In this document: piece by piece, positions 943 through 26,423 of the stretch
How positions within the stretch are numbered: the stretch's first letter is position 1
Layout of the letters: every line of letters starts with the position of its first letter
Notes under the pieces: generated by a model
Told to the model about the DNA's origin: nothing
Databases searched by the model: none
The model's input: only the letters and a program-made list of their open reading frames with translations
Position numbers and translations under genes: made by a program
Source of the DNA: Bacteroidia bacterium
GTDB lineage: Bacteria; Bacteroidota; Bacteroidia; J057
Length of the DNA stretch: 64,000 bases
Assembly (NCBI GenBank): GCA_022760475.1
Contig: JALEFZ010000006.1
Location: forward strand, 1-64,000
Direction of reading: 5' to 3'

Positions 943-3900
943 ATGAGAAAAACTTTACCACTCTTTTTTTTAATCCTGACCTTTCTCATACCCGCCCATG
1001 CCACGCACAACATGGGAATTAAACTTTCCTATGAATGTTTGGGCAATGGAGATTACAGGATTCGCAGCACCCATTATGTCGATTGTCAAAATTCATTTAC
1101 GATAAGCCAGGGTTATTCCGCTAATAGCCTAGGCCAATCCATAGCAATTGATTTGGACTGCCCGGGAGCAACTTTAATTGCCCTAAGCCAATGGACTACT
1201 GAAAAAATCACTGACATCAGTCGACTTTGCCCGGGAGTAGTTTCTCCCTGTAACTCCATTTTTCCTACTGGAGTAGGAGGCTATGCCGAGGTCACCATTT
1301 ACAGAGATTACAACATTCCCAATCCCCCATGTAATTCGGGAACAATTTCTTCTAATTTTGCTGCGTGGAACCCATTAGTTACGTCTATGGGGGCATATTC
1401 AAGTAATTATCAGAGCATTAAACTGAATTTAACTTCGAATGGATGTACAAACAGTTCCCCGCAATTTCTGTCAGATCCTATGGTATTTGTGTGCAATACA
1501 GATACCTTATCCATGAACCTATCCGCTTTCGACCCTGACGGAGATTCTTTGGTTTACAGATTGGATACCCCCATTTCAATGCAAGGAAGCCCATTGCCTT
1601 ATCTCCCTAGCTATTCACCCTTAGCGCCTATGGGACCCAATTGGTATGTGAAGCTGGATTCTTTCTCAGGCAAACTTTCCATCGCAGGAAATGGAGCAGC
1701 ACCTGAAGTTGGACTTATGAGCGTAGAGGCAAGGTCTTACCGAAACGGAGTCTTTGTGGGATCTTCTACGGTAACATGGGTATTGCAAGGGCTCAACTGC
1801 TTACCTGATGATGCACCTGCCGCACAACAACTGAAGCTCATAAATGGTGGTATCCAGACAGGACTTTATGATTTACAAGCCTTTAAGGGAATCCCAATTA
1901 CTTTTGAATTGGTGTTTGAGGATGACAGTGCTAAGATATTGACGATTGAAAAAGAATATGAACGTCAATTGCCAGGAGCTACCTTCTCTTATCAAGGCTC
2001 AAACCCAATACTGGTCAAGGTTGAATGGACACCAGATTCTTCATTCGAAGGTAAAACATTTATCTCGGGTCCTACTACCCTTGATGATAAATGTGAGGTA
2101 ACCAACTATACATACCAACCTGTTAAAATTACCGTGGCTCCTTTGGTCTTTGATGCCGTGGTAACCAACAGTAGCTGCAGCTCAAATACAGGCAGCATTG
2201 ATTTGACGATTCAAGGGAATCAGGGGAGTTATGATTATTTCTGGAGCAATGGGGCAACAACCGAAGACCTTTCAGGTCTGGCACCTGGTGCATACACAGT
2301 CCAAATTACCAATCCCTTTGGCTTTTACTATGAAGAAACTTTCATGGTCTATGCAGGAGATATTCAAACCAATCTGAATGTCGTGCAACCCACTTGCAGT
2401 TTAAGCAATGGAACTATTTCTGTTTCTCCTACCGGAGGTTCAGGGCCTTATACGTATTTGTGGAATACGGGCGCTACTACAAATAACCTTTCAAATTTAA
2501 GCCCAGGGGGATATTCTGTGCTAATCACCGATGCCCTGGGTTGCTATAGAAATGAAAGTGTAAGCTTGAATTTTGGAGACAGTTGTGGAACTTTCGTCAG
2601 TGGACGGGTCTTCTTTGATGCCGATTCCAATTGTGTATATGGCCTTAATGATCTTGAAACACCGAACATCTTCATTTATACGAGCCAGGGACACGGTACA
2701 TTCACGGACAACCTGGGCAATTACAGGCTTAGGGTTGATCCTGGGAATTTGAGTATAGCCATGTCGCTGATTCATGCCAATACTGCTTGCGGTATCAATG
2801 TCCAATACCTGAACTTGGTACCGGGGCAGGATACCAGCGGGATAGATTTTCCATGGTATGTTACACCATACAGGGACCTTGTGGCTAGTATGTCAATGGA
2901 TTCCATCGCTAGTCCCATGGGGAGATTGGGGGGGGCAGCTGCAAGAAATGTAGGTAACTATCCTATGGATGGTACTTTTCGAATGTTACTTGACCCTCGT
3001 TTACGGGCTTCATTTTACCGTAAACCTCCTGATTATATCAATTATGCAACCAATGAATTCAGGTGGAATTTCAGGGGCTTATTGCCGCGAATGAATTTTT
3101 ACATAGCTGGGGTTATTCGTCCAAAAAATAATGTAAATATTGGGGATACCCTGGTAAGTATAGTTCAGGTATTACCTGACAGCCTTGACGCTACCCCTGG
3201 AGACAATATTGACACGATATACACGCTTGTTGTGGGGCCGTACGATCCTAATGACAAGCAGGTTAGCCCAGCTGGCATGGGAGAGTTGGGATTGGTAAGG
3301 CTGGATGAAAGGGATCATGAATACAAGATCCGCTTCCAAAATGTTGGAAATTATCCAGCAAAGAATGTGTTGATTCGGGATACCCTGGATCCGAATCTGG
3401 ACATCACTACTTTAAATCCACTTTTTGCTACAGATGATTTTGTAGCTTCTGTTAAGCCCGGGAGGGTGCTAGAGTTTTTCTTTGAAGACATTTACCTTCC
3501 AGATTCGGTGAGTGATCCCATCGGGAGCATAGGAGAAATTAACTTTTCGATCCAGCATGTAGCCTCCATTCCCAAGGGCAGTCAAATTAGAAATAAGGCC
3601 GCCATTTACTTTGATTTCAACGAACCTATCATTACCAATGAGGTACTGAATACCCTCTATACCCAGCCCGATGTGAAAATAATGAGCAACCCTTCCGATG
3701 TATATTGTGAAGGGGATGAATTAAATGCTCTTTTGTCTGGTGAGGGCATGGAGCCTTATACCTATAGCTGGAGTACAGGTGATGTAGATAGCAAGGTATT
3801 GGATCTGCAAAGTAATACCCACTTGACTCAAAGTGGGTGGTATACTGTCCGGGTGGAGGATTCTTTTGGAATTACCACCATTGATAGTGTAGAAGTGAAT

Positions 3901-4398
3901 GTAACGGTATCTCCTGAAATAGACTTAACTTGGTCAGTAGGGCAGGATGGACTTGTCCTCAATGCCGGTAATCCTGCGATCAGTTCCTATCAATGGGAGT
4001 TCGGCAATGGGAATACTTCTTCGGCTGCAGAACCAAGACTTGATGTAAGTGGCCTGAGTTCCCTAAGCGTTCGACTCATTGCTAGCAATGATTGTGGAAC
4101 TGATACAGCAGAAACGGTACTCACCTTTACAGGTATACAAAGGACAGCGGTATTTGGAAAAATTAGCATCCTCCCTCATCCGGTTAAAGACATCTCTACT
4201 TTTAAGTTCGAAAATCCACTTCAGGAAGAGATGAGCCTAACCATATTGGATATCAGAGGGAGAAAAATGTTAAATCTAAGTCGTAGTAGAGGTAATACTT
4301 TCCTGATCCACAAAAATGCCCTGCCCACGGGAATTTATACTTACCTCCTCAGCAGTGATTCCGGCAAGACCCAATATGGGAAAATCGTTATTGAATAG
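943..4398 (+). CDS. Large T9SS-secreted surface protein with SprB repeats (tandem copy 1)
   Basis: This 1151-residue exported protein has a signal peptide (residues 1-20, cleavage after IPAHA). The N-terminal region opens with THNMGIKLSYECLGNGDYR, typical of large Bacteroidota adhesin-like proteins. Two SprB-type repeats lie at about 405-545, each with the W-(S/N)-x-G-A-T-T core and GxYxVxITD ending. A SdrD/CnaB-like segment (GRVFFDADSNCVYG) follows at about 550-605. A DUF7619-type domain begins at YDPNDKQVSP (about 767-905). A PKD-like segment and a T9SS type A sorting domain close the protein (about 1066-1151, ending GIYTYLL...KIVIE). By family knowledge it would cross the outer membrane through T9SS and be anchored or released. 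It is a clear paralogue of the next gene. A run of eight G lies inside the coding region at 2928-2935. Confidence 0.9.
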   Translation: MRKTLPLFFLILTFLIPAHATHNMGIKLSYECLGNGDYRIRSTHYVDCQNSFTISQGYSANSLGQSIAIDLDCPGATLIALSQWTTEKITDISRLCPGVVSPCNSIFPTGVGGYAEVTIYRDYNIPNPPCNSGTISSNFAAWNPLVTSMGAYSSNYQSIKLNLTSNGCTNSSPQFLSDPMVFVCNTDTLSMNLSAFDPDGDSLVYRLDTPISMQGSPLPYLPSYSPLAPMGPNWYVKLDSFSGKLSIAGNGAAPEVGLMSVEARSYRNGVFVGSSTVTWVLQGLNCLPDDAPAAQQLKLINGGIQTGLYDLQAFKGIPITFELVFEDDSAKILTIEKEYERQLPGATFSYQGSNPILVKVEWTPDSSFEGKTFISGPTTLDDKCEVTNYTYQPVKITVAPLVFDAVVTNSSCSSNTGSIDLTIQGNQGSYDYFWSNGATTEDLSGLAPGAYTVQITNPFGFYYEETFMVYAGDIQTNLNVVQPTCSLSNGTISVSPTGGSGPYTYLWNTGATTNNLSNLSPGGYSVLITDALGCYRNESVSLNFGDSCGTFVSGRVFFDADSNCVYGLNDLETPNIFIYTSQGHGTFTDNLGNYRLRVDPGNLSIAMSLIHANTACGINVQYLNLVPGQDTSGIDFPWYVTPYRDLVASMSMDSIASPMGRLGGAAARNVGNYPMDGTFRMLLDPRLRASFYRKPPDYINYATNEFRWNFRGLLPRMNFYIAGVIRPKNNVNIGDTLVSIVQVLPDSLDATPGDNIDTIYTLVVGPYDPNDKQVSPAGMGELGLVRLDERDHEYKIRFQNVGNYPAKNVLIRDTLDPNLDITTLNPLFATDDFVASVKPGRVLEFFFEDIYLPDSVSDPIGSIGEINFSIQHVASIPKGSQIRNKAAIYFDFNEPIITNEVLNTLYTQPDVKIMSNPSDVYCEGDELNALLSGEGMEPYTYSWSTGDVDSKVLDLQSNTHLTQSGWYTVRVEDSFGITTIDSVEVNVTVSPEIDLTWSVGQDGLVLNAGNPAISSYQWEFGNGNTSSAAEPRLDVSGLSSLSVRLIASNDCGTDTAETVLTFTGIQRTAVFGKISILPHPVKDISTFKFENPLQEEMSLTILDIRGRKMLNLSRSRGNTFLIHKNALPTGIYTYLLSSDSGKTQYGKIVIE

Positions 4399-4414
4399 AC
4401 CAAAGTTTTGAATT

Positions 4415-4450
4415 GAAGCCAGGCCCAAGCATTCATAGGGTCCTGGCTTC
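4415..4450 (+). terminator. Hairpin between the two tandem T9SS genes
   Basis: GAAGCCAGG (4415-4423) pairs perfectly with CCTGGCTTC (4442-4450) around an 18-nt loop, 17 nt after the stop of the first paralogue. No T-run follows, so this is either a weak terminator or an mRNA-stabilising stem. Confidence 0.35.
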
Positions 4451-4490
4451 ATCACAATATAGGTATAGGGAAAATCCTTCGATTACGGAA

Positions 4491-4518
4491 TTGTAAGATT
4501 TCGTTAGTCATATATTTC
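4491..4518 (+). promoter_or_regulatory. Candidate Bacteroidota-type promoter for the second paralogue
   Basis: TTG at 4491-4493, a 17-nt spacer and TATATTTC at 4511-4518 fit the phylum consensus TTG / TAnnTTTG except for the last base. The predicted leader is about 100 nt. Placement between a hairpin and the next start supports it, but one mismatch in a short motif is weak evidence. Confidence 0.35.
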
Positions 4519-4627
4519 AGAGTTTTGTAGGGTTTGTTCCCGTTCAGGAAATTTATTGATAAGCAAGCACACGTATATCCTTCCTTTACCGTTTACAGCA
4601 CTTTTCTTCAATCTAACTAACGATGCC

Positions 4628-7600
4628 ATGAGAAAAACTTTACTGTTTGTTTTATCTTTTTTATGCGTGATAGGTCAAATTAAGGCCACCCATATTGTGG
4701 GCAGCAAGATGACCTACGAATGTCTTGGTAATGGCGATTACAAAATCACCGTAACCAATTATGTAGATTGTACTGGATCTGCTGCTGCTACCTATGTGCC
4801 AGTAGGTTTGGCAAATGCTCCAAATCAACCTTTTACCTCCATCAATTTTCAAATGTCTTGCCCAGGGGGAGTCATAAATCCAGTAGGCTCCTGGGTTGCG
4901 GAGTCATTTACAGATATAAGTAGGCTCTGTCCTGGCGTAGTATCTCCCTGTAATGCAAATATTCCCAATCCTCCTTATTATGGTTATGCTGAGTTGACCA
5001 TGACAAGGACTTACAATGTCGCCGTAGCTCCTTGTAGTACGGCTGTTTTGAGTGCAACGACTTGCTGCAGAAATGCCCTGATTACATCTATCTCTCAACC
5101 AAGTGGAAATGGTTTGTATCAGCAGATTGATATTCCGGTATCTCCAACAGGCTGTAACAACAACTCTCCACAATTTCTCAGTGAACCAAGAATTTTTGTA
5201 TGTAACAATGACACAACGGTCCTAAATCTATCTGCTTTCGATCCGGATGGGGACTCATTGTTTTACAAGTTTTATGTTCCAGGTTCAAACTCTACAACCC
5301 TGTTAAATTATCTTCCTGGGTATAGTTCAAACGTAGTTTTGGGACCAAACTGGTATGTCAACCTAAACTCCCAAAGTGGTGAGTTAAAGGTTGCAGGAAA
5401 TGGCGCTGCCCCGGAAATTGGAGTAATTGGTCTGGAAGTTGAAGAATACAGGAACGGACAACTCCTGGGTTCGGTGCAAATGGATTTTCAGATTGTAGGA
5501 AACAGCTGTCCTCCCGATGATGCGCCTTCTGCTGGCCCGCTAAATTTGATCAATGGTGGCATCAAGACAGGGCCATATGAATTGCAGGCCTATGTGGGGG
5601 TTCCATTAGAATTTGAAATTACTTTCACTGATGACAGTGCCCTCCAAATGATCCTGGATGCAGGCTTGGGTTCCCAGATACCTGGAGCTGTGATTACAGG
5701 CACAGGTTCAAATCCATTTACCCTCAATATCAAATGGACTCCTGATTCTACATTTGAAGGCCTTACCTTCTTTGCAGGGCCTACAGTGATTGACGACAAT
5801 TGCCCCATTGCCAACAGTACTTACCGTCCAATCCAATTCAATGTAGTTCCCTTGACTTATGATGCTATTGTAACCAATAGCGATTGTAATGTTAATAATG
5901 GTGCAATTGACATCACTATTCAAGGTACACAAGGTGCTTTTGATTTTCTTTGGAGTACAGGAGACACTACATCCGCAATTACCGGCCTTGGACCTGGAAC
6001 TTATACCGTAGTGATAACAAATAGCTCGGGCTTTAGCTATTCAGAGAGTTTTGTTGTCAATGCAGGTACCCTGCAATCTAATTTGACTATATCTACCCCA
6101 ACTTGTGGCCAAAACGATGGAAGCCTATCAGTAGCTCCCAGTGGCGGAATCCCTCCCTACAGCATAACATGGAACACAGGAGCCACAAGCAATAGCATCA
6201 ACAACCTTCCCGTGGGTGGATATTCAGTTGTAATTACCGATTCGCAAAATTGTTACCAGCTAGAGAGTGTTTACCTGGATTTTGATGACTCATGTGGTAC
6301 GTTTGTCAATGGTCGTGTCTACTTTGACGCAGATACCAACTGCGTATATGGAGTCGGAGATACAGCTACAGCCGGAATTCTTGTTTACAGTAGCCAGGGA
6401 TATGGGACCTTCACCAACAGTCAGGGCTATTACAGGCTCAGGGTTGACCCCGGAGTATTTGCCCTTGGAGCCAGTGTAATGAGCAACAGCTTTAGCTGTG
6501 CACAACAAACGAAATTTTTGAATCTCTCTTTGGGAGATGATACCATGGATGTAGATTTCCCCTGGTTTGTACCTCCAACGCAAGACCTTGTCGCCTTGGG
6601 AGGGCATGCAGTAGCGACCCCAGGGCGAATTACGACTGTTTATGCGAGCGTATTTAACCAGGGAAACATTCCTATGAGTGGTTATGTCGAATTGGAGTAC
6701 GATCCAGGGCTTCGTTACTATGGCAGCATGCCAAACGTGAATTTTATTGATTCCATAAACAGAATCATCAGGTGGGATTTTGCAGGCCTACTCCCATATC
6801 AGACCAATTTCCACTATGCAAACTTTATAGTTGATTCTACCTTGCTTTTAGGTGATCAATTGACCAATTATGTAAGGGTCTTTCCAGATAGTGGAGATGT
6901 AACTCCCAATAATAACGTTGATACCGTAATCACTTTTTTGAGAGCATCCTTCGACCCCAATGATAAGCAGGTGAGTCCTGTAGGATTGGGTGAACTAGGC
7001 CTCATCAAAATGGATGAAAAAGACCATAGCTATCGAATCCGTTTCCAAAATATTGGGAATTATCCTGCCCAAAATGTACTTATCAGGGATACCATTGATG
7101 AAAACCTGGAGTTGACAAGCCTGAGGCCTCTATTTGCTTCTGATGACTATGTAGTCAACATCAAACCAGGAAGGATCGTGGAGTTTCTCTTCGAAGACAT
7201 CTTCCTACCTGACTCTTTGAGCGATCCAGAGGGCAGTATAGGTGAGATTCAATTTACCATTCAAAGTAAGCCTGATTTGCCTAAGGGAACTCAAATCCGA
7301 AACAAGGCCGGTATCTACTTTGATTTCAATGATCCCATCATTACCAATGAAGCGCTCAATACCTTCTACATCCAACCCAAGGTTGAAATTCCTACAGATC
7401 TTTCTGGGATCAACTGTGAGGGAGATGAAATCACCGCCTTGCTTGCAACTGAAGGGATGGAGCCATATACCTATACCTGGAGCACCGGAGACATTGATAG
7501 CAGGATCTTTGATCTTCAAAGCACCTCTCAACTTGATTCCAGTGGTTGGTACTACATTACTGTTGTGGATTCATTTGGAATTACAACTGTTGATAGTGTG

Positions 7601-8107
7601 GAAGTCGGGGTTACACCCAAACCAAGTATTGATCTGAGCTGGACGATAGGTAACAATGAGGTCAGCTTCAGTGCGGGAGATCCTAGCTTGAATAACTACA
7701 ACTGGGTATTTGGCAATGGAACTACTTCTAACGAAGCCGAACCGCAGGTAGATGTTTCGGGCTTACCTGGCCTGACAGTGCTCCTCATCGCCTCCAATGA
7801 TTGTGGAAGTGATACTTCGAGCGCAGTAGTCTTGTTGACTGGACTGGAGCCCAAATCTGAATTTGGAGAGGTGAAAATCATGCCTCATCCTGTACAAGAT
7901 ATTTCTACCCTTCAATTTGATAACCCGTCAAGGGATGAAGTCAGTCTGATCGTCCTGGATACCCGTGGCCGTGAAGTATTTAAATTCGAACCTACGAATG
8001 GAGAAAATTTCGTAATCGAAAAAGGAGACCTTCCTGAAGGGATATATTTATACAAATTGCGAAGTCAAAACGGACGTACGCATCACGGAAAGTTAATTAT
8101 GAAGTAA
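4628..8107 (+). CDS. Large T9SS-secreted surface protein with SprB repeats (tandem copy 2)
   Basis: This 1159-residue protein is a full-length paralogue of the preceding gene with the same domain order: signal peptide, THIVGSKMTYECLGNGDYK opening, two SprB-like repeats, GRVYFDADTNCVYG segment, DUF7619-type domain starting FDPNDKQVSP, PKD-like segment and T9SS type A tail. An in-frame TTG at 4556 would add 24 residues. I chose ATG 4628 because MRKTLL matches the paralogue's MRKTLP start and both are preceded by a related CTAACTAAC sequence. That shared upstream sequence suggests the duplicated unit included the 5' untranslated region. The gene has its own candidate promoter and a strong terminator, so it can be expressed apart from copy 1. 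Confidence 0.9.
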   Translation: MRKTLLFVLSFLCVIGQIKATHIVGSKMTYECLGNGDYKITVTNYVDCTGSAAATYVPVGLANAPNQPFTSINFQMSCPGGVINPVGSWVAESFTDISRLCPGVVSPCNANIPNPPYYGYAELTMTRTYNVAVAPCSTAVLSATTCCRNALITSISQPSGNGLYQQIDIPVSPTGCNNNSPQFLSEPRIFVCNNDTTVLNLSAFDPDGDSLFYKFYVPGSNSTTLLNYLPGYSSNVVLGPNWYVNLNSQSGELKVAGNGAAPEIGVIGLEVEEYRNGQLLGSVQMDFQIVGNSCPPDDAPSAGPLNLINGGIKTGPYELQAYVGVPLEFEITFTDDSALQMILDAGLGSQIPGAVITGTGSNPFTLNIKWTPDSTFEGLTFFAGPTVIDDNCPIANSTYRPIQFNVVPLTYDAIVTNSDCNVNNGAIDITIQGTQGAFDFLWSTGDTTSAITGLGPGTYTVVITNSSGFSYSESFVVNAGTLQSNLTISTPTCGQNDGSLSVAPSGGIPPYSITWNTGATSNSINNLPVGGYSVVITDSQNCYQLESVYLDFDDSCGTFVNGRVYFDADTNCVYGVGDTATAGILVYSSQGYGTFTNSQGYYRLRVDPGVFALGASVMSNSFSCAQQTKFLNLSLGDDTMDVDFPWFVPPTQDLVALGGHAVATPGRITTVYASVFNQGNIPMSGYVELEYDPGLRYYGSMPNVNFIDSINRIIRWDFAGLLPYQTNFHYANFIVDSTLLLGDQLTNYVRVFPDSGDVTPNNNVDTVITFLRASFDPNDKQVSPVGLGELGLIKMDEKDHSYRIRFQNIGNYPAQNVLIRDTIDENLELTSLRPLFASDDYVVNIKPGRIVEFLFEDIFLPDSLSDPEGSIGEIQFTIQSKPDLPKGTQIRNKAGIYFDFNDPIITNEALNTFYIQPKVEIPTDLSGINCEGDEITALLATEGMEPYTYTWSTGDIDSRIFDLQSTSQLDSSGWYYITVVDSFGITTVDSVEVGVTPKPSIDLSWTIGNNEVSFSAGDPSLNNYNWVFGNGTTSNEAEPQVDVSGLPGLTVLLIASNDCGSDTSSAVVLLTGLEPKSEFGEVKIMPHPVQDISTLQFDNPSRDEVSLIVLDTRGREVFKFEPTNGENFVIEKGDLPEGIYLYKLRSQNGRTHHGKLIMK

Positions 8108-20469: not shown

Positions 20470-23121
20470 CTAGAAACTTAAGTTAGCCTTGAGAATAAAA
20501 GTTCGAGGCCTCAACCTGATTCTCTGTTCCAATGTATAAATATCTGTCAATTGATTGTTTCCATAGAATTGAACATTGGCCAGATTCATCCCCTTTAGGA
20601 TAAATTCAAACTTTAATTTTTGGTTCTCGAGCGAAGGAAATTCAAGCTCAAATTCCTGGAAATTAAAGCCTTGTCTTTCCTGTCCCTGATTTGCTAGTAT
20701 GATAAATTCATTTCGCCCAACGAGTTCCAGTTTAAAGGGTAGGTGTATCAGTAAGTCTGCATAAGCAGATCCAGAAAATGAATGTGCATTAGAATAATTA
20801 CCGCTTTGTAGAAGAAAGAAATGATTTAAACTAGGACGACCCCCAAGGATAAAGTCGAATGGTGAAGAAGTTGCTGTTCGGGCAAAAAGTTGTAGGGCAT
20901 AATTAACCTGGTAGATCGTCCTGGCTTCCATATCGAGGCTATTGTTGTAGATAGAAGAACTTAGTTGAGGTCGAATTTTAATGGCAGTTTTAAATTTTGC
21001 AAAATACCTTTCCACTCCGCCCCAGATTTCTACCCGGTGGAAGTCATTTTCTCGGATAATCCAGTTTGATATTTGAAATGCAGAATCTATTCGAAATTCA
21101 TTCTGATAATCAAAACTACCTTTTGAGAGTTCAATTTTTAGCATTTTGACAGATCTATTGAAATTGCTAAGGTTGGGATGCGAAATAAAATTCGCGCTTA
21201 TTTTATGCTTATTTCCAAGCCTAAGTTCTGATATGCCTTGCTGGTAATTCCTATAGGTAAGCAGGAAGGGATCTGATGCGATTTGATCAATTTGTGGTAA
21301 GACCTGATGGAAGACATAGCTGATATTCCAGCTCCCGTTGATTTGCTTTCTCCCAATGAAAAACTGCGTAAAAAAATAGGGTCGAATTAGGTTTTTTCCT
21401 ATGCTATTTGCCTCACGTAGGTTGAGTGCCAAACGACCATAATGGAGTTCTAAAAATGCTGTAGGTCTGCGGGGCTTTGTATATTTTATTTTTAGCTCTC
21501 CATTTGCCACGAATTTTTCATATCTGGTTTGATTAAACATTTCCTCCTGGCTCGAACCTCTAGCCGCCACCACAAAATTTATTCCCGGACTCAGCCTGTG
21601 CATCCATCTGATATTGCCATTCCAGTGATCCATTTTCAGGGATAAATTTTGATACTGAAGGCTATCTGCTTCTTCATTTAAAATTTTCCTCAAATGATCA
21701 GTTTGAATACCAAGTGTTTGAGTTGAGATTAAATCTGCATAGCCTCCATCCAGAATAAAAAGGTTTTTTCTATCAAGCCGGAATAGCCATGCCAAGTGAT
21801 GATCCTGCCTTGAATCAGGCTTGGAAAAGGAAATGCGGTATGTGTCAACCCCAAGTTCCAATTGTGAGAGGGAATTTTCGGTATTTCTTGAGATTCTATT
21901 AAGAACCGTTAGATTAGACTTCTTTCCTGTATTGAGCCTGTTTTTTAGTTGGAGGTGTAGGCCTCGGTTCTGATTTGATAACCTATAATCCTCTTGAAAT
22001 AGCAATTGATTTTGAGTTCCTGAGAATAGCCTCCTAATCTCCATGAATTGTTGTTCTTCATACTGATCAAGTCCTATTTCAAGGAAGGAAGTAAACTTCT
22101 GAGAGGGTTTCAGGTGAAATCGGGATACATTCCAAGTATTAGAGTTGAATCGGAATGGGATAAAATCGGAGGGTAAGTTGATTTCAGGGTTCTCAAAGGA
22201 AGGAACCTTATTCATGCCACCAAGCAAAGGATGAGCTGTAACGATCCCTTGAAGGCCTTCCCAGGGATTGCTGATGGGCGTTGCTCTTGATTTCCCGATA
22301 GATTGGTGTTGAGCGATCTGTATGAGCTTCAAATTTTTCAAGAAAAGGAGTGCGTTAAGGGAAGCGATTCTCGATTGTGCGTTTCCGAGTCCTAATTCAA
22401 GGTTAAAGCTGGGTTTTCTACCTTTTTCCGGATTCAATTCTACATTTAGAATTAGACTTTCGGGTACATCAAAGCCTACTAATAGGCTATTTTCCACATA
22501 ATTACTCACAAACTCCAATCGTTTTACCATTTCAATCGGAAGATTTTGAGAAATCAACCGATAATCGTTTCCACTCAGGTCATCCCCGTCCAGAAGGATA
22601 CTTTTTATCTCCTGATTGCCAAAGCTGATTTTCCCGTTTTGGGCTATTTCAACTCCAGGAATCTTCCTTAGCACATCTTCAAGTGTTCTCTCCGTCGAGT
22701 CCATATAAGCCTTTGGATCGTAGGCAATGGTATCTACAGACTGCTTTACAGATGGCATCTCAGAAATAACTACTTCATTAAGTTGAAAAGACTTTTCTTC
22801 AAGAAATATGACCATATCAGGATTCAGGCTATCCAAGCGAATACTTCTAGCCTCGTAAGCAAGAGACTCAATAATTAGAAGGAAGTGTTTGGACTGGGCT
22901 GAATCTGGAATCTCAATGATGAAGAACCCTTCTTTATTAGAAAAGGCGTAGGCATTAACAAGGCTAGATTCTTCATTGACAAGGCTAATGACTGCATTAG
23001 GAATGGGATTCAGGCTGTACTTGTTGAGCACCTTTCCTTCAAGGGAAATAGACTCCTGGGCAGCAATAAATGCCAACCCAAGAATCGTGAAAACCCCTAG
23101 CAATAAAATTCTTTTCATCAT
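20470..23121 (-). CDS. TonB-receptor-like outer-membrane beta-barrel (last gene of the cysteine-rich peptide operon)
   Basis: This 883-residue outer-membrane protein has a signal peptide ending FIAAQ and a CarboxypepD_reg-like domain at about 25-110 (LEGKVLNKYSLNPIPNAVIS). A plug-like segment follows at about 125-215 (ERTLEDVLRKIPGVEIAQNG, KSILLDGDDLSG), then a long barrel ending FILKANLSF. It matches the outer-membrane protein group commonly found beside GLPGLI genes. The TTG at 23124 and ATGs at 23121 and 23118 are possible starts; 23121 is used. It begins 5 nt after the GLPGLI stop, indicating translational linkage. Whether it imports or exports is not decided by sequence; the upstream peptides are obvious candidate ligands. 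Confidence 0.88.
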   Translation of the reverse strand: MMKRILLLGVFTILGLAFIAAQESISLEGKVLNKYSLNPIPNAVISLVNEESSLVNAYAFSNKEGFFIIEIPDSAQSKHFLLIIESLAYEARSIRLDSLNPDMVIFLEEKSFQLNEVVISEMPSVKQSVDTIAYDPKAYMDSTERTLEDVLRKIPGVEIAQNGKISFGNQEIKSILLDGDDLSGNDYRLISQNLPIEMVKRLEFVSNYVENSLLVGFDVPESLILNVELNPEKGRKPSFNLELGLGNAQSRIASLNALLFLKNLKLIQIAQHQSIGKSRATPISNPWEGLQGIVTAHPLLGGMNKVPSFENPEINLPSDFIPFRFNSNTWNVSRFHLKPSQKFTSFLEIGLDQYEEQQFMEIRRLFSGTQNQLLFQEDYRLSNQNRGLHLQLKNRLNTGKKSNLTVLNRISRNTENSLSQLELGVDTYRISFSKPDSRQDHHLAWLFRLDRKNLFILDGGYADLISTQTLGIQTDHLRKILNEEADSLQYQNLSLKMDHWNGNIRWMHRLSPGINFVVAARGSSQEEMFNQTRYEKFVANGELKIKYTKPRRPTAFLELHYGRLALNLREANSIGKNLIRPYFFTQFFIGRKQINGSWNISYVFHQVLPQIDQIASDPFLLTYRNYQQGISELRLGNKHKISANFISHPNLSNFNRSVKMLKIELSKGSFDYQNEFRIDSAFQISNWIIRENDFHRVEIWGGVERYFAKFKTAIKIRPQLSSSIYNNSLDMEARTIYQVNYALQLFARTATSSPFDFILGGRPSLNHFFLLQSGNYSNAHSFSGSAYADLLIHLPFKLELVGRNEFIILANQGQERQGFNFQEFELEFPSLENQKLKFEFILKGMNLANVQFYGNNQLTDIYTLEQRIRLRPRTFILKANLSF

Positions 23122-23126
23122 CAAGC

Positions 23127-23927
23127 CTACTTCAGGGTGATTTCGACTCGATTTATCTTGCCAATGTCAAACTCTTGTTTTTGACCTGCTTTGCGCTCTG
23201 CTGACGCCCGTTGAGCATCTACGATTGCTTTGCGGATGTTATATTCTGCTTCCATAAAAGCCTGAATGCTAATCTTCTCTCCATTTATTGGAGGGGTTAT
23301 TTTTTCTGGCTTGGCTGAAGGGATTTTAATGGATTTATATGCGAAGCTAACCTCAGACTTTGCATCTTCGACCTCCAGTATCAGGCCTGGAAGACCATTG
23401 AATTTCCAGGGCCCATATGGAACCGGGATATCTTTTGTATACCAGGCTGTATAGGTTCGACCCCTGAAACTTGTTTCAGCTTTATGACAGGTGAATTTTC
23501 CAATTTTCTTGATGCCGTTGAGGAGTTTCCACTTGAAATCAATCCAAACAGGCTCCTGGACAAGGAAAGCTTTATTGACTACAATCTCCCTAAAGATTAT
23601 TTTTTTCGCCTGAAAATCAGTAAAAAATTCATTCCCAAATGGATCTAGCATAAAAGCGGTGAATAACTGGCCTTTGTTGGTAGGATCAACTTTTTGGGCA
23701 TCCTCCATGCTAATTTCCTGACCATTTCGGTCGAAAATTCTAATGCCGTTTCCCTTTCCATATGAGAAAATAGATCTATTTTTTTGGAAGGAGAGCTTGG
23801 CTTCGCGCGGAAGTTTAAATCCATCGAAGTTTGTCGTAAAGGTATAGGTTACGTTACCAGAAATATCCTGAGCAATTCCTGTGAAAAAGGAAAACAGGAT
23901 CAGAATGCAAATGAAGATGTTTTTCAT
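23127..23927 (-). CDS. GLPGLI-family secreted protein
   Basis: This 266-residue protein has a signal peptide (1-19, FFTGIAQ) and the defining FNGLPGLILEVED motif at about residue 177. The surrounding region is typical of TIGR01200: TCHKAETSFRGRTYTAWYTK, then PVPYGPWKF. The function of GLPGLI proteins is unknown. In my experience of the family they are often beside a carboxypeptidase-regulatory-like outer-membrane receptor, as here. The start ATG overlaps the TGA of the upstream lipoprotein by 4 nt, a classic coupling arrangement. The tail is lysine- and alanine-rich (QRASAERKAGQKQ). Confidence 0.92.
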   Translation of the reverse strand: MKNIFICILILFSFFTGIAQDISGNVTYTFTTNFDGFKLPREAKLSFQKNRSIFSYGKGNGIRIFDRNGQEISMEDAQKVDPTNKGQLFTAFMLDPFGNEFFTDFQAKKIIFREIVVNKAFLVQEPVWIDFKWKLLNGIKKIGKFTCHKAETSFRGRTYTAWYTKDIPVPYGPWKFNGLPGLILEVEDAKSEVSFAYKSIKIPSAKPEKITPPINGEKISIQAFMEAEYNIRKAIVDAQRASAERKAGQKQEFDIGKINRVEITLK

Positions 23928-24352
23928 GGTTGGGTGGTATTTGAGGTAATGGTATAAAAGGGTGGCTGTCCTGAATCAATCAGGAGGCTATCAATTCTAT
24001 GGCGAGCCAATGGGCTTTGAAGTTTCCTGAGCGAGTTGGCAAGGTCTATGAACACTTTTTCAGGACTCATTTCCATTTCCTGACTTTTGACCTTCTCCAG
24101 ATAGCTGACCATCTTCTTGTAGATTTTCCTAGCCTCAGGATCAGAATCTTCATACAGTATTCGGGCAATGTTTTTCCAATTTTGATAGTACTCGTAGCTT
24201 TGACTTTTGCTCCGCTTGATAGAGTCCTGCATCCAGCTTAGGCTTGCTTGAGAATGACTGTCCCGGCTCAAACTGGAATTGTCTTGACAAGACCAAAGGC
24301 CGACTAATGCCATAAAGATTATGGCAACGCATGTATATTTATGATTTTTCAT
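23924..24352 (-). CDS. Small lipoprotein of the peptide/GLPGLI operon
   Basis: This 142-residue protein has a lipoprotein signal with lipobox GLWSC (Cys near residue 22). The mature part is largely helical and charged (WMQDSIKRSKSQSYEYYQNW..., KIYKKMVSYLEKVKSQEME) and has no recognised domain. It begins 63 nt after the second cysteine-rich peptide, with a hairpin between, and overlaps the GLPGLI gene by 4 nt. It is therefore locked into the downstream expression unit. It may be a periplasmic partner of the GLPGLI protein; that is inference from position only. Confidence 0.8.
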   Translation of the reverse strand: MKNHKYTCVAIIFMALVGLWSCQDNSSLSRDSHSQASLSWMQDSIKRSKSQSYEYYQNWKNIARILYEDSDPEARKIYKKMVSYLEKVKSQEMEMSPEKVFIDLANSLRKLQSPLARHRIDSLLIDSGQPPFYTITSNTTQP

Positions 24353-24375
24353 GGTTGATAGCTTAAAAGATGAAT

Positions 24376-24404
24376 GACAAACCTCCCTGAAAGGGAAGTT
24401 TGTC
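24376..24404 (-). promoter_or_regulatory. Intra-operon hairpin after the cysteine-rich peptide genes
   Basis: On the minus-strand RNA, GACAAAC-U-UCCC pairs with GGGA-G-GUUUGUC around a UUUCA loop, a 12-bp stem with one G-U pair. The corresponding plus-strand RNA would have a C-A mismatch instead, which fits function on the minus strand. No U-run follows. It sits 11 nt after the stop of the second peptide and could attenuate transcription or protect the peptide mRNA, favouring the peptides over downstream genes. Confidence 0.6.
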
Positions 24405-24415
24405 TCGGGTCGAGC

Positions 24416-24721
24416 TTAATTCCCAGGAGAATTACAGCTACAGGCAGCAAACATAAAGTTGGAGCTACACTCGCACATTTGAGTTTCTGCGCATGAAGCA
24501 CTTGCATAGTGGCCCAACCAACTCGTTGCAGAGCAAGTGTGATTCAAGATTCCCATATCGCCCCAAAATTGCTCCATACTGGAATCAAATTCAGGGAAGT
24601 AAAAGGTCTCTGTTGACAGCCTGGCTGTGTTGATTCCCTCTGCTTCATCAGCTACGAGGGTCGGTAGAGAGAGGAAAATAGCAAATACGAATAGCAAACT
24701 TGCCTTGATCAAAGTTTTCAT
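24416..24721 (-). CDS. Secreted six-cysteine mini-protein (copy A)
   Basis: This 101-residue protein has a signal peptide (about 1-24, cleavage near TLVAD) and a short linker. An FYFPEFDSSMEQFW segment (about 41-54) precedes a C-terminal cysteine domain with spacing C-x13-C-x5-C-x-C-x8-C-x-C and the conserved SWLGxYAS between the first two cysteines. The upstream neighbour has exactly the same cysteine spacing, so the pair are paralogues. No known bacteriocin, lanthipeptide or NVEALA leader motif was recognised, and no modification enzyme lies nearby. The six cysteines suggest three disulfides or metal binding after export. It lies in one operon with a lipoprotein, a GLPGLI protein and an outer-membrane receptor. 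Confidence 0.85.
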   Translation of the reverse strand: MKTLIKASLLFVFAIFLSLPTLVADEAEGINTARLSTETFYFPEFDSSMEQFWGDMGILNHTCSATSWLGHYASASCAETQMCECSSNFMFAACSCNSPGN

Positions 24722-24762
24722 GGAAATAGCATTTATTGTTAAATAATGTTAGAGGGGGAAGG

Positions 24763-25062
24763 TCAGACGTTTTCGCAATGACATTCTGCACTGACAAAAG
24801 TCGTCGTACACACACAGTTTTGTCTGCTCAGACAGGTCGAGGATGCGTAGCCACCTAGCCAAGAACGCGCCGAACAGGAGTTGTGAAGGGGTTCCATGCT
24901 TTGCCAGAAGCTCTCCATTGTGTCATCAAATTCTGGGAAGTAGAATTCTTCTTTGAGAATGTCTTTACCGTCAGCCTCGCTTACAGTGTCTGCAATCATT
25001 GGAGTCGATAGCAGAACTACTGCAAATCCTGCCAATAAGCAGATCTTGCTTAATACTTTCAT
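24763..25062 (-). CDS. Secreted six-cysteine mini-protein (copy B, first gene of the operon)
   Basis: This 99-residue paralogue of the next gene has a signal peptide (about 1-24, cleavage near MIAD) and then EFYFPEFDDTMESFW. Six cysteines follow with identical C-x13-C-x5-C-x-C-x8-C-x-C spacing (SCSARSWLGGYASSTC... HCENV). Outside the FYFPEFD and SWLGxYAS blocks the two copies differ freely, especially between cysteines 3 and 6. This is the pattern expected of a fixed scaffold with variable loops. The gap to copy A is 41 nt. The upstream 140 bp, bounded by the terminator of the gene before, must hold the operon promoter, but I could not fix a convincing TTTG / TAnnTTTG pair there. Confidence 0.85.
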   Translation of the reverse strand: MKVLSKICLLAGFAVVLLSTPMIADTVSEADGKDILKEEFYFPEFDDTMESFWQSMEPLHNSCSARSWLGGYASSTCLSRQNCVCTTTFVSAECHCENV

Positions 25063-25202: not shown

Positions 25203-25237
25203 ATAAAAAACTCTCCTTCAAATTCCTTGAAAGAGAG
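25203..25237 (-). terminator. Rho-independent terminator isolating the peptide operon from the upstream gene
   Basis: On the minus strand CTCTCTTTCAA (25237-25227) pairs with TTGAAGGAGAG (25221-25211), an 11-bp stem with one G-U pair and a 5-nt loop, followed by TTTTTTAT. It follows the stop at 25260, so the peptide operon has its own promoter between 25063 and 25202. Confidence 0.85.
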
Positions 25238-25259: not shown

Positions 25260-26423
25260 TTATTTACACCTGATTTCTTCGAGGTCTTCATCGATATATA
25301 TCATGTATTGAAAAGCCTTGCTGATATTCTTAAAAGGTGAGTTCTCGCCGGTCAATCTACAAAGCACAACCCTGTCAGGGTAAGCCTTTTCTACATAATT
25401 GATCATGTCCTTTAGCGCATCATTCTCTTTCCATTTGGCATACTCATCCTGAAAATTTCTGAGGTATCTGGTGATGGCCATAACCTCGCCTTTCACTGGA
25501 GAATTTCCCTTTTCATTGAGCTGTCTCGCAATGGTTGGGAAATCCCAACTCAGCCCCTTGGCAAGTTGTGTATGCAAAGCACCAAATTGTGCATAACAGC
25601 CCCCATCCTGCAATTCGCGCTGAATGGTCAGGAAGTTGAGATACATCTGATCTTCTCTGACTTTCCAGCTTTTGGTCGAAAGGGCTATATTTAACCAGTT
25701 GAAGTTATACCCTGCGACCGTATTGTCTACAATCATTTCGAAAATTGAGAAGTTGTTATCGAGGAAGGCCTTATACTCACCTTCTTTCTTTTCCATGTCT
25801 TTTTTCAGGCGTTTGAACATCCTGGAGACTTGCTTGTCATCAATGTAGGGAGACTTGTGAAGCTCCTTCACAGCCTTTAAGCGTTTTTTTATGGCCTTAG
25901 GAAATTCTTTATTGGGGATCTGTAAATTCAGGACTTGCAAGGCCAGTTCAGGTGAGTGCTCCAGGTCAATGCCAAGAACCCTTATTTGATCTTTTTCAGG
26001 CAGATTTTTATTGTATTGATGGATTCTGCGGTACATCGTCCGCATGTTATCTGGACAGATAGGTGCCACAGCAAGTGCCTTGTCTAAAATTCTTTCGTTC
26101 CCACTTTTTACGTAGCTATTTAGAAGAAAGCCATAGCTGTATCCCCCTTCTACAATCAGATTTTTGACCCCGGCAGTCTGATGCAGGTAAAGGAGGAAGT
26201 TCAATTGGAGCTGGGTGTTGATCTTTTTTCTGTGTTCCTCGCCAGTGAAGAAAAAAGAATACTTGGGTACAACTTCGTCAAGGGGTTCGAAAGAGATAAA
26301 ATTGCTATCTCCCTTGATTACCAAAGGATGAACGTAGTTTTGCCATTTTATGCTATCTGTCTGTGCGCCAAGTTTCAGCGTAAAAATCGATAGAAAAAGG
26401 AACAGGGATAATCGGAATATCAT
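25260..26423 (-). CDS. Exported EreA/ChaN-like domain protein
   Basis: This 387-residue protein has a signal peptide (1-20, LKLGAQ). It reads FFFTGEEHRKKINTQLQLNF at about 53-72, then VKNLIVEGGYSYGFLLNSYV, IRVLGIDLEHSPELA and, later, CYAQFGALHTQL. The GExH near the start, a V(I/V)EGG strand, a D(L/I)E turn and a late GxxH match the erythromycin-esterase / ChaN-like clan. Resistance to a macrolide is not implied: most such proteins are uncharacterised, and the spacing GEEH differs from the classic GExxH of EreA. It stands alone as a transcription unit, with a strong terminator downstream and a divergent antiporter upstream. Confidence 0.7.
   Translation of the reverse strand: MIFRLSLFLFLSIFTLKLGAQTDSIKWQNYVHPLVIKGDSNFISFEPLDEVVPKYSFFFTGEEHRKKINTQLQLNFLLYLHQTAGVKNLIVEGGYSYGFLLNSYVKSGNERILDKALAVAPICPDNMRTMYRRIHQYNKNLPEKDQIRVLGIDLEHSPELALQVLNLQIPNKEFPKAIKKRLKAVKELHKSPYIDDKQVSRMFKRLKKDMEKKEGEYKAFLDNNFSIFEMIVDNTVAGYNFNWLNIALSTKSWKVREDQMYLNFLTIQRELQDGGCYAQFGALHTQLAKGLSWDFPTIARQLNEKGNSPVKGEVMAITRYLRNFQDEYAKWKENDALKDMINYVEKAYPDRVVLCRLTGENSPFKNISKAFQYMIYIDEDLEEIRCK

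What the first reader, a model, noticed from the sequence alone, without database searches (positions are those of the whole stretch)
23127..25062. Operon of two six-cysteine secreted mini-proteins with a lipoprotein, GLPGLI protein and outer-membrane receptor
Seen: two exported proteins of about 100 residues share FYFPEFD, SWLGxYAS and exact C-x13-C-x5-C-x-C-x8-C-x-C spacing, yet differ between cysteines. They are followed by a lipoprotein coupled (ATGA overlap) to a GLPGLI protein, then a receptor 5 nt later. A terminator isolates the set from the gene upstream. Known: GLPGLI proteins and such receptors are of unknown function. Inferred: a disulfide-rich peptide made for export, signalling, metal capture or antagonism, with the receptor as its transporter or target. 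I know of no described system with this content.
Basis: partly seen in the sequence, partly recalled or inferred. Interest (0 to 1): 0.78.

Follow-up and report, generated by a model that had tools for sequence, protein, structure and literature searches.

The report
Secreted disulfide mini-protein operon in Bacteroidota
Two small secreted proteins with six cysteines each begin an operon that continues with a likely periplasmic carrier (GLPGLI) and an outer-membrane transporter, and the same arrangement with other, highly varied small cysteine proteins recurs across the Bacteroidota but is described in no paper we could search, which makes the unknown role of GLPGLI proteins directly testable.

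Summary
P0001 and P0002 are diverged, purifying-selected paralogues with identical six-cysteine spacing, followed by a lipoprotein, a GLPGLI protein and a predicted TonB-dependent transporter (TBDT). No sequence relatives of the peptides were found in 395 genomes of the class, but the layout recurs widely. Among 80 loci fetched only by similarity to the window's GLPGLI, 41 of 83 GLPGLI clusters have a small secreted protein with two or more cysteines beside them, against 4 of 168 background genes (p=2e-19). A commoner GLPGLI/TBDT subfamily does not (1 of 43). These peptides are hypervariable, usually hold an even number of cysteines, and are usually separated from GLPGLI by a strong hairpin; the window has this hairpin too. 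A confident model of the GLPGLI protein has the LolA/RseB-type periplasmic carrier fold, and the receptor model has a TBDT plug and barrel. Best reading: a secreted disulfide mini-protein made in excess, escorted by GLPGLI and moved across the outer membrane by the TBDT. The module is well supported (about 0.9). Export rather than import, and the peptides' purpose, are inferred (about 0.45). I found no description of the module in the open literature searched.

The parts
25211..25237 (-). terminator-like hairpin followed by TTTTTT, separating the operon from the upstream erythromycin-esterase-like gene
24763..25062 (-). P0001, secreted mini-protein 1, 99 aa, six Cys after the signal peptide
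   Evidence: no Pfam or NCBIfam match
24416..24721 (-). P0002, secreted mini-protein 2, 101 aa, same six-Cys spacing
24376..24404 (-). 13-bp hairpin between the peptide genes and the machinery genes, probable attenuator or mRNA stabiliser; counterpart found at most relatives
23924..24352 (-). P0003, putative lipoprotein, 142 aa, no family above cut-off
23127..23927 (-). P0004, GLPGLI family protein with predicted LolA/RseB-like periplasmic carrier fold
20470..23121 (-). P0005, predicted TonB-dependent transporter: N-terminal CarboxypepD-reg-like domain, plug, large beta-barrel

Best explanation
The operon is one copy of a Bacteroidota-wide module: one or more hypervariable, Sec-secreted, disulfide-bonded mini-proteins, a GLPGLI protein, and a TBDT-like outer-membrane barrel. 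Shown: the gene set, its recurrence, the even cysteine numbers, the hairpin, the predicted folds. Inferred: the hairpin lets peptide mRNA be made in excess over the machinery; the peptide enters the periplasm through Sec and forms its disulfides there; GLPGLI, a LolA-like carrier, holds the peptide and hands it to the TBDT; the TBDT moves it through the outer membrane (Oar/PopC-type export); outside, it acts on neighbouring cells or kin as an antagonist or signal. Confidence is about 0.9 that the module is real and about 0.45 for the export mechanism.
For: Recurrence: 41/83 against 4/168 in an independent set with an unchanged criterion, p=2e-19; 12/41 against 0/83 in the discovery set; 1/43 in the common GLPGLI subfamily as a contrast. 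Peptide presence clusters on the GLPGLI tree, and the window's nearest rows mostly carry peptides. Small secreted proteins near GLPGLI have two or more Cys in 64 of 70 cases, against 12 of 36 elsewhere, p=7e-10. Mature Cys counts are even in 56 of 66, p=3e-9. A stem of at least 10 bp lies between peptide and GLPGLI in 34 of 44 cases, against 53 of 161 other gaps, p=2e-7; the window has it, z=-3.87. The GLPGLI model (pLDDT 89.7) matches the PNGase NBL domain (Z 15.7) and then LolA, LolB and RseB (Z about 8.7-10.7). The P0005 model (pLDDT 82.4) matches TBDTs such as FyuA, Cir and BtuB. Export through a TBDT has a precedent, Oar/PopC (PMC6434023). Bacteroidetes graspetide loci also carry TonB-linked barrels for which export was proposed (PMC8939145). 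At G159 the peptide, GLPGLI and TBDT are all broken.
Against: No experiment shows direction of transport or any peptide-GLPGLI contact. Most TBDTs import. A shared LolA-like fold does not prove carriage of a peptide. About half of close GLPGLI clusters lack a detectable peptide, so the GLPGLI/TBDT pair can act without one or with cargo elsewhere. The conserved GLPGLI cysteine does not track peptide presence. The window's six-Cys type has only one distant, broken relative elsewhere.
Confidence: 0.45

Rival explanations
1. Import: the peptide is a secreted scavenger (like a hemophore) that binds a metal, cofactor or ligand outside and is brought back, or unloaded, through the TBDT; GLPGLI receives the cargo in the periplasm.
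For: The P0005 model matches import receptors for B12, haem and siderophores. Import is the usual work of TBDTs. A LolA-like cavity could hold a ligand. High expression of the peptide would fit a scavenger.
Against: No inner-membrane importer or peptidase lies in the operon. Cysteine numbers are mostly even and paired with hypervariable loops, which fits disulfides better than a conserved metal site. Hypervariability is unexpected for capture of one common ligand.
Confidence: 0.2
2. Antagonism with self-protection: the peptides are bacteriocin-like toxins, and the GLPGLI/TBDT pair is the immunity or receptor part rather than the exporter.
For: Peptides are hypervariable: 66 fall into 50 similarity groups. 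They often come in pairs, e.g. two-peptide pairs kept between Polaribacter L347 and L399. A double-glycine-leader peptide resembling Chryseobacterium bacteriocin-like leaders stands in the same slot at L314, below the family cut-off. TBDTs are common bacteriocin receptors.
Against: No killing data. GLPGLI/TBDT are kept in many loci without a peptide. Immunity genes usually vary together with toxins, whereas GLPGLI keeps strong motifs.
Confidence: 0.2
3. The small ORFs are regulatory leader peptides of an attenuator controlling GLPGLI/TBDT, not functional products.
For: A hairpin follows the small ORFs and precedes GLPGLI in most loci.
Against: They are 55-130 aa with signal peptides, show purifying selection between the window's paralogues, have even cysteine numbers, occur in several non-identical copies, and some families are conserved between distant genera.
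Confidence: 0.06
4. The peptide-GLPGLI association is a sampling artefact of loci rich in small ORFs.
For: The criterion was devised after seeing the first set; loci of related genomes are not fully independent; the signal-peptide rule is a simple heuristic.
Against: The unchanged criterion gave 41/83 against 4/168 in a new set, while a matched GLPGLI/TBDT subfamily gave 1/43. The hairpin and the Cys-parity signals are separate observations.
Confidence: 0.03

Closest known systems
TBDT-mediated protein export, Oar/PopC of Myxococcus xanthus (PMC6434023)
   Same: A TonB-dependent transporter needed for a protein to leave through the outer membrane; here a TBDT-fold protein is encoded with a secreted protein
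   Different: PopC is a protease; no GLPGLI-like carrier is named in the part of the paper read (its abstract and section list); and here transport is not shown
Bacteroidetes graspetide / grasp-with-spasm peptide loci (PMC8939145)
   Same: Fast-evolving small precursors in loci that can carry a TonB-linked beta-barrel proposed as exporter
   Different: Those use ATP-grasp/SPASM maturases and ABC export; here Sec signal peptides, cysteines and GLPGLI, with no maturase in the operon
LolA/LolB/RseB periplasmic carriers
   Same: Predicted fold of GLPGLI, LolA Z about 10.7
   Different: No sequence-family match; cargo here is unknown and not shown to be lipoprotein
N-terminal bowl-like (NBL) domain of PNGase F-II (4r4z, 7zgn)
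   Same: Sequence and fold relative of GLPGLI
   Different: Fused to a glycanase; its function is itself unknown (PMC9522356)
Bacteroidetocins and double-glycine-leader bacteriocin-like peptides
   Same: Small, Cys-containing secreted Bacteroidota peptides; one such leader found in the same slot at L314
   Different: The window's peptides have Sec signal peptides and a different cysteine pattern

Membership tests
GLPGLI family (TIGR01200) | Score over the curated cut-off of the family model | tested here: met
   P0004 161 bits against cut-off 50, E 2.9e-47
TonB-dependent transporter | Plug domain inside a large (about 22-strand) barrel | tested here: met
   Predicted model, pLDDT 82.4, with N-terminal domain, plug and barrel; best PDB matches are TBDTs, e.g. 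FyuA, Cir, BtuB
TonB-dependent transporter | Pfam plug/barrel model over its cut-off | tested here: not met
   P0005: Plug E 0.13 and CarbopepD_reg_2 24.1 bits, both under cut-off; few relatives match barrel models
TonB-dependent transporter | TonB box and energy-dependent transport | not tested
   TonB box not searched for; transport needs experiment
LolA family | LolA-type half-barrel fold | tested here: met
   Predicted model; LolA chains at Z up to 10.7
LolA family | LolA sequence-family match | tested here: not met
   No LolA family among Pfam/NCBIfam matches of P0004
Bacteroidetocins / double-glycine-leader peptides | Double-glycine leader | tested here: not met
   P0001 and P0002 have Sec-type signal peptides and no GG leader; no family match
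Graspetides (grasp-with-spasm) | ATP-grasp or SPASM maturase in the operon | tested here: not met
   Operon genes P0001-P0005 show no such match
Oar-type TBDT export | Secretion of the cargo depends on the TBDT and on Ton | not testable with these tools
   Needs gene deletion and secretome analysis
Peptide-GLPGLI-TBDT module (proposed here) | Secreted Cys mini-protein beside GLPGLI of the P0004 branch, with hairpin between, and a TBDT | tested here: met

The most novel reading that the evidence does not exclude
GLPGLI proteins of this branch are dedicated periplasmic carriers and their TBDT partners are dedicated outer-membrane exporters, together forming an undescribed secretion route across Bacteroidota for a very large, unannotated repertoire of disulfide-bonded mini-proteins used between cells.
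Probability: 0.35. Interest if true: 0.92.

Novelty: new variant of a known kind. Interest (0 to 1): 0.76.

Why it matters
GLPGLI proteins and their TBDT partners are widespread in Bacteroidota and have no known function. Tying one branch to secreted disulfide mini-proteins gives them a candidate cargo and a direct test. It also points to a large unannotated repertoire of variable secreted mini-proteins in soil, marine and gut Bacteroidota, possibly moved by a TBDT working outward, which has few precedents.

Tried and rejected
Sequence homologues of P0001/P0002: none in Pfam, NCBIfam, PADLOC, PDB, plasmids, viral contigs, or 395 class genomes by profile; weak profile hits were read and were noise. 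A cysteine-pattern scan was swamped by TG-rich repeats but gave one true relative, G159/L211. The scan of viral contigs gave only low-complexity matches. I expected the conserved GLPGLI cysteine (C147) to go with peptide presence, hinting at thiol exchange: no association. CxxC thioredoxin-like genes near clusters: 6/189 against 5/732, p=0.013, too weak and partly chance matches, so not used. Order-level GLPGLI neighbours (L049-L058) belong mostly to the other GLPGLI branch and lack peptides. The search with P0003 found no relatives in the order. Literature: no paper linking GLPGLI to secreted peptides. Peptide folds were not predicted: only two structure jobs were allowed, and two sequences make a poor alignment for the window's peptides.

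Full report
WHAT IS THERE. On the minus strand, 25062 to 20470, five genes follow one another: P0001 (24763-25062), P0002 (24416-24721), P0003 (23924-24352), P0004 (23127-23927) and P0005 (20470-23121). Gaps are 41, 63, -4 and 5 nt. P0001 and P0002 carry a signal peptide, the motif FYFPEFD, and C-x13-C-x5-C-x-C-x8-C-x-C. They are 43-44% identical with saturated synonymous change but restrained amino-acid change (pS 0.95, pN 0.41), so they are real, old paralogues. The pattern is found twice in the window and never in shuffles, and twice in the whole genome. P0004 is a GLPGLI protein. A terminator-like hairpin isolates the operon upstream, and a second strong hairpin lies between P0002 and P0003.

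NO SEQUENCE RELATIVES, BUT A RECURRING LAYOUT. Profile searches of the 22 genomes of the order and 395 of the class found no relatives of the peptides. A scan for the bare cysteine pattern gave mostly low-complexity matches but one hit in a distant family (G159, L211): CQGNGALGGACSIICPPGCGCSCSSYLFGCSCTC. It lies upstream of a GLPGLI gene (58% identical to P0004 over the core) and a TBDT-like gene (33%). There the peptide gene has an early in-frame stop and the GLPGLI and TBDT genes are frameshifted, so all three parts appear to decay together; sequencing error cannot be excluded.

ANCHORING ON GLPGLI. GLPGLI proteins similar to P0004 were found in 45 of 395 class genomes. Their neighbourhoods (L242-L281) showed small secreted cysteine proteins upstream. 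I fixed a criterion (55-130 aa, signal peptide by a simple rule, not a lipoprotein, two or more Cys in the mature part, same strand, within 700 nt): 12 of 41 clusters against 0 of 83 background genes. Because the pattern was noticed in this set, two further sets were used. Set B, loci taken from the best TIGR01200 matches in one large family (about half drawn at even steps, about half multi-copy loci), gave 1 of 43 against 1 of 76. Set C, 80 loci fetched from named genomes solely by similarity to P0004's branch, gave 41 of 83 clusters against 4 of 168 with the criterion unchanged, p=2e-19. The hosts include Flavobacterium, Aquimarina, Maribacter, Polaribacter, Pedobacter, Mucilaginibacter, Marivirga, Runella and gut Prevotella, several orders in all. 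A tree of GLPGLI proteins shows the peptide label clustered (12 changes against 23 in shuffles), and four of the five nearest rows to the window's protein carry peptides.

WHAT THE PEPTIDES SHARE. Sixty-six peptides fall into 50 groups by BLAST, so they are hypervariable. They match no Pfam or NCBIfam family over its cut-off in the examples tested. Mature cysteine counts are even in 56 of 66 (2, 4 or 6), p=3e-9. Secreted small proteins near GLPGLI have at least two Cys in 64 of 70 cases, against 12 of 36 elsewhere in the same loci. A frequent type has the form C-T-[VIL] ... C followed by a probable helix. Some loci hold conserved pairs (L347 and L399). Upstream peptides mostly lie 50-100 nt before GLPGLI.

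A HAIRPIN BETWEEN PRODUCT AND MACHINERY. In 44 gaps between a peptide gene and GLPGLI, mean folding energy per base is -0.23 against -0.13 in 230 other gaps, p=2e-9. A stem of at least 10 pairs is present in 34 of 44, against 53 of 161 other gaps and 21 of 69 gaps before GLPGLI or TBDT genes without a peptide. The hairpin sequences differ from locus to locus. The window's hairpin (13 bp, -20.1 kcal/mol, z -3.87) sits at the same place, after the second peptide. The simplest reading is partial termination or mRNA stabilisation that makes the peptide more abundant than the membrane machinery (inference).

THE MACHINERY. AlphaFold2 with 63 aligned sequences gives P0004 a confident model (pLDDT 89.7, pTM 0.84). 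Its closest solved structures are the NBL domains of PNGase F-II (Z 15.7), also found by sequence and themselves of unknown function (PMC9522356). Next come VioE, LolA, LolB, EPDR1 and RseB/MucB at Z about 9-11. This is the open half-barrel fold of periplasmic carriers and sensors of lipoproteins or unfolded proteins. The P0005 model (pLDDT 82.4, pTM 0.75) has an N-terminal domain, a plug and a large barrel, and its best matches are TBDTs, although Pfam models do not reach their cut-offs.

MECHANISM. The parts suggest Sec export of the peptide to the periplasm, disulfide formation, capture by the LolA-like GLPGLI protein, and passage through the TBDT. Export by a TBDT has an experimental precedent, Oar/PopC (PMC6434023), and export was also proposed for TonB-linked barrels in Bacteroidetes graspetide loci (PMC8939145). 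Import of a scavenger and bacteriocin-plus-immunity are the main rivals. Nothing here shows the direction of transport or the target. P0003 is peculiar to this locus as far as tested.

LIMITS. The signal-peptide rule is a heuristic (it missed P0001, whose signal peptide holds a Cys). Related loci are not independent, although the peptides mostly are unrelated to each other. Set C was ranked by similarity to P0004, so the 49% figure holds for that branch, not for all GLPGLI proteins. The literature search covers open-licence papers only. The window's own six-Cys type remains nearly unique, so its fold and purpose are open.

Noticed in passing
L314:2963-9540: A GLPGLI+TBDT pair flanked by two double-glycine-leader peptides with the same leader (MLKNILNLKGVVQL[NS]REQQKSINGG) and by CxxC thioredoxin-like genes: the same slot filled by a peptide of another export type.
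   Followed up: partly
L211:3400-6870: In G159 the peptide, GLPGLI and TBDT genes are all interrupted, as if the whole module were decaying together.
   Followed up: partly
L250:3267-12808: One TBDT with seven tandem GLPGLI copies (one split in two frames) and no detectable peptide.
   Followed up: no
L347:5360-5939 and L399:5324-5922: Two different peptides, conserved as a pair between Polaribacter and a Bacteroidia MAG, both before GLPGLI; reminiscent of two-peptide systems.
   Followed up: no
G000:C17:35370-36044 (L049): The window's genome has a second GLPGLI+TBDT pair of the other, common branch, without a peptide.
   Followed up: partly
window 25260-26423: Secreted protein with a marginal erythromycin-esterase match (27.2 bits against a cut-off of 26.4) just upstream of the operon.
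   Followed up: no
window 943-8107: Two large tandem paralogues of about 1150 aa (both with ATH...YECLGNGDY near the start), probably secreted surface proteins.
   Followed up: no
literature PMC9603813: Several GLPGLI genes are in the PhoP regulon of Riemerella anatipestifer, both up and down, which hints at differing roles of paralogues.
   Followed up: no
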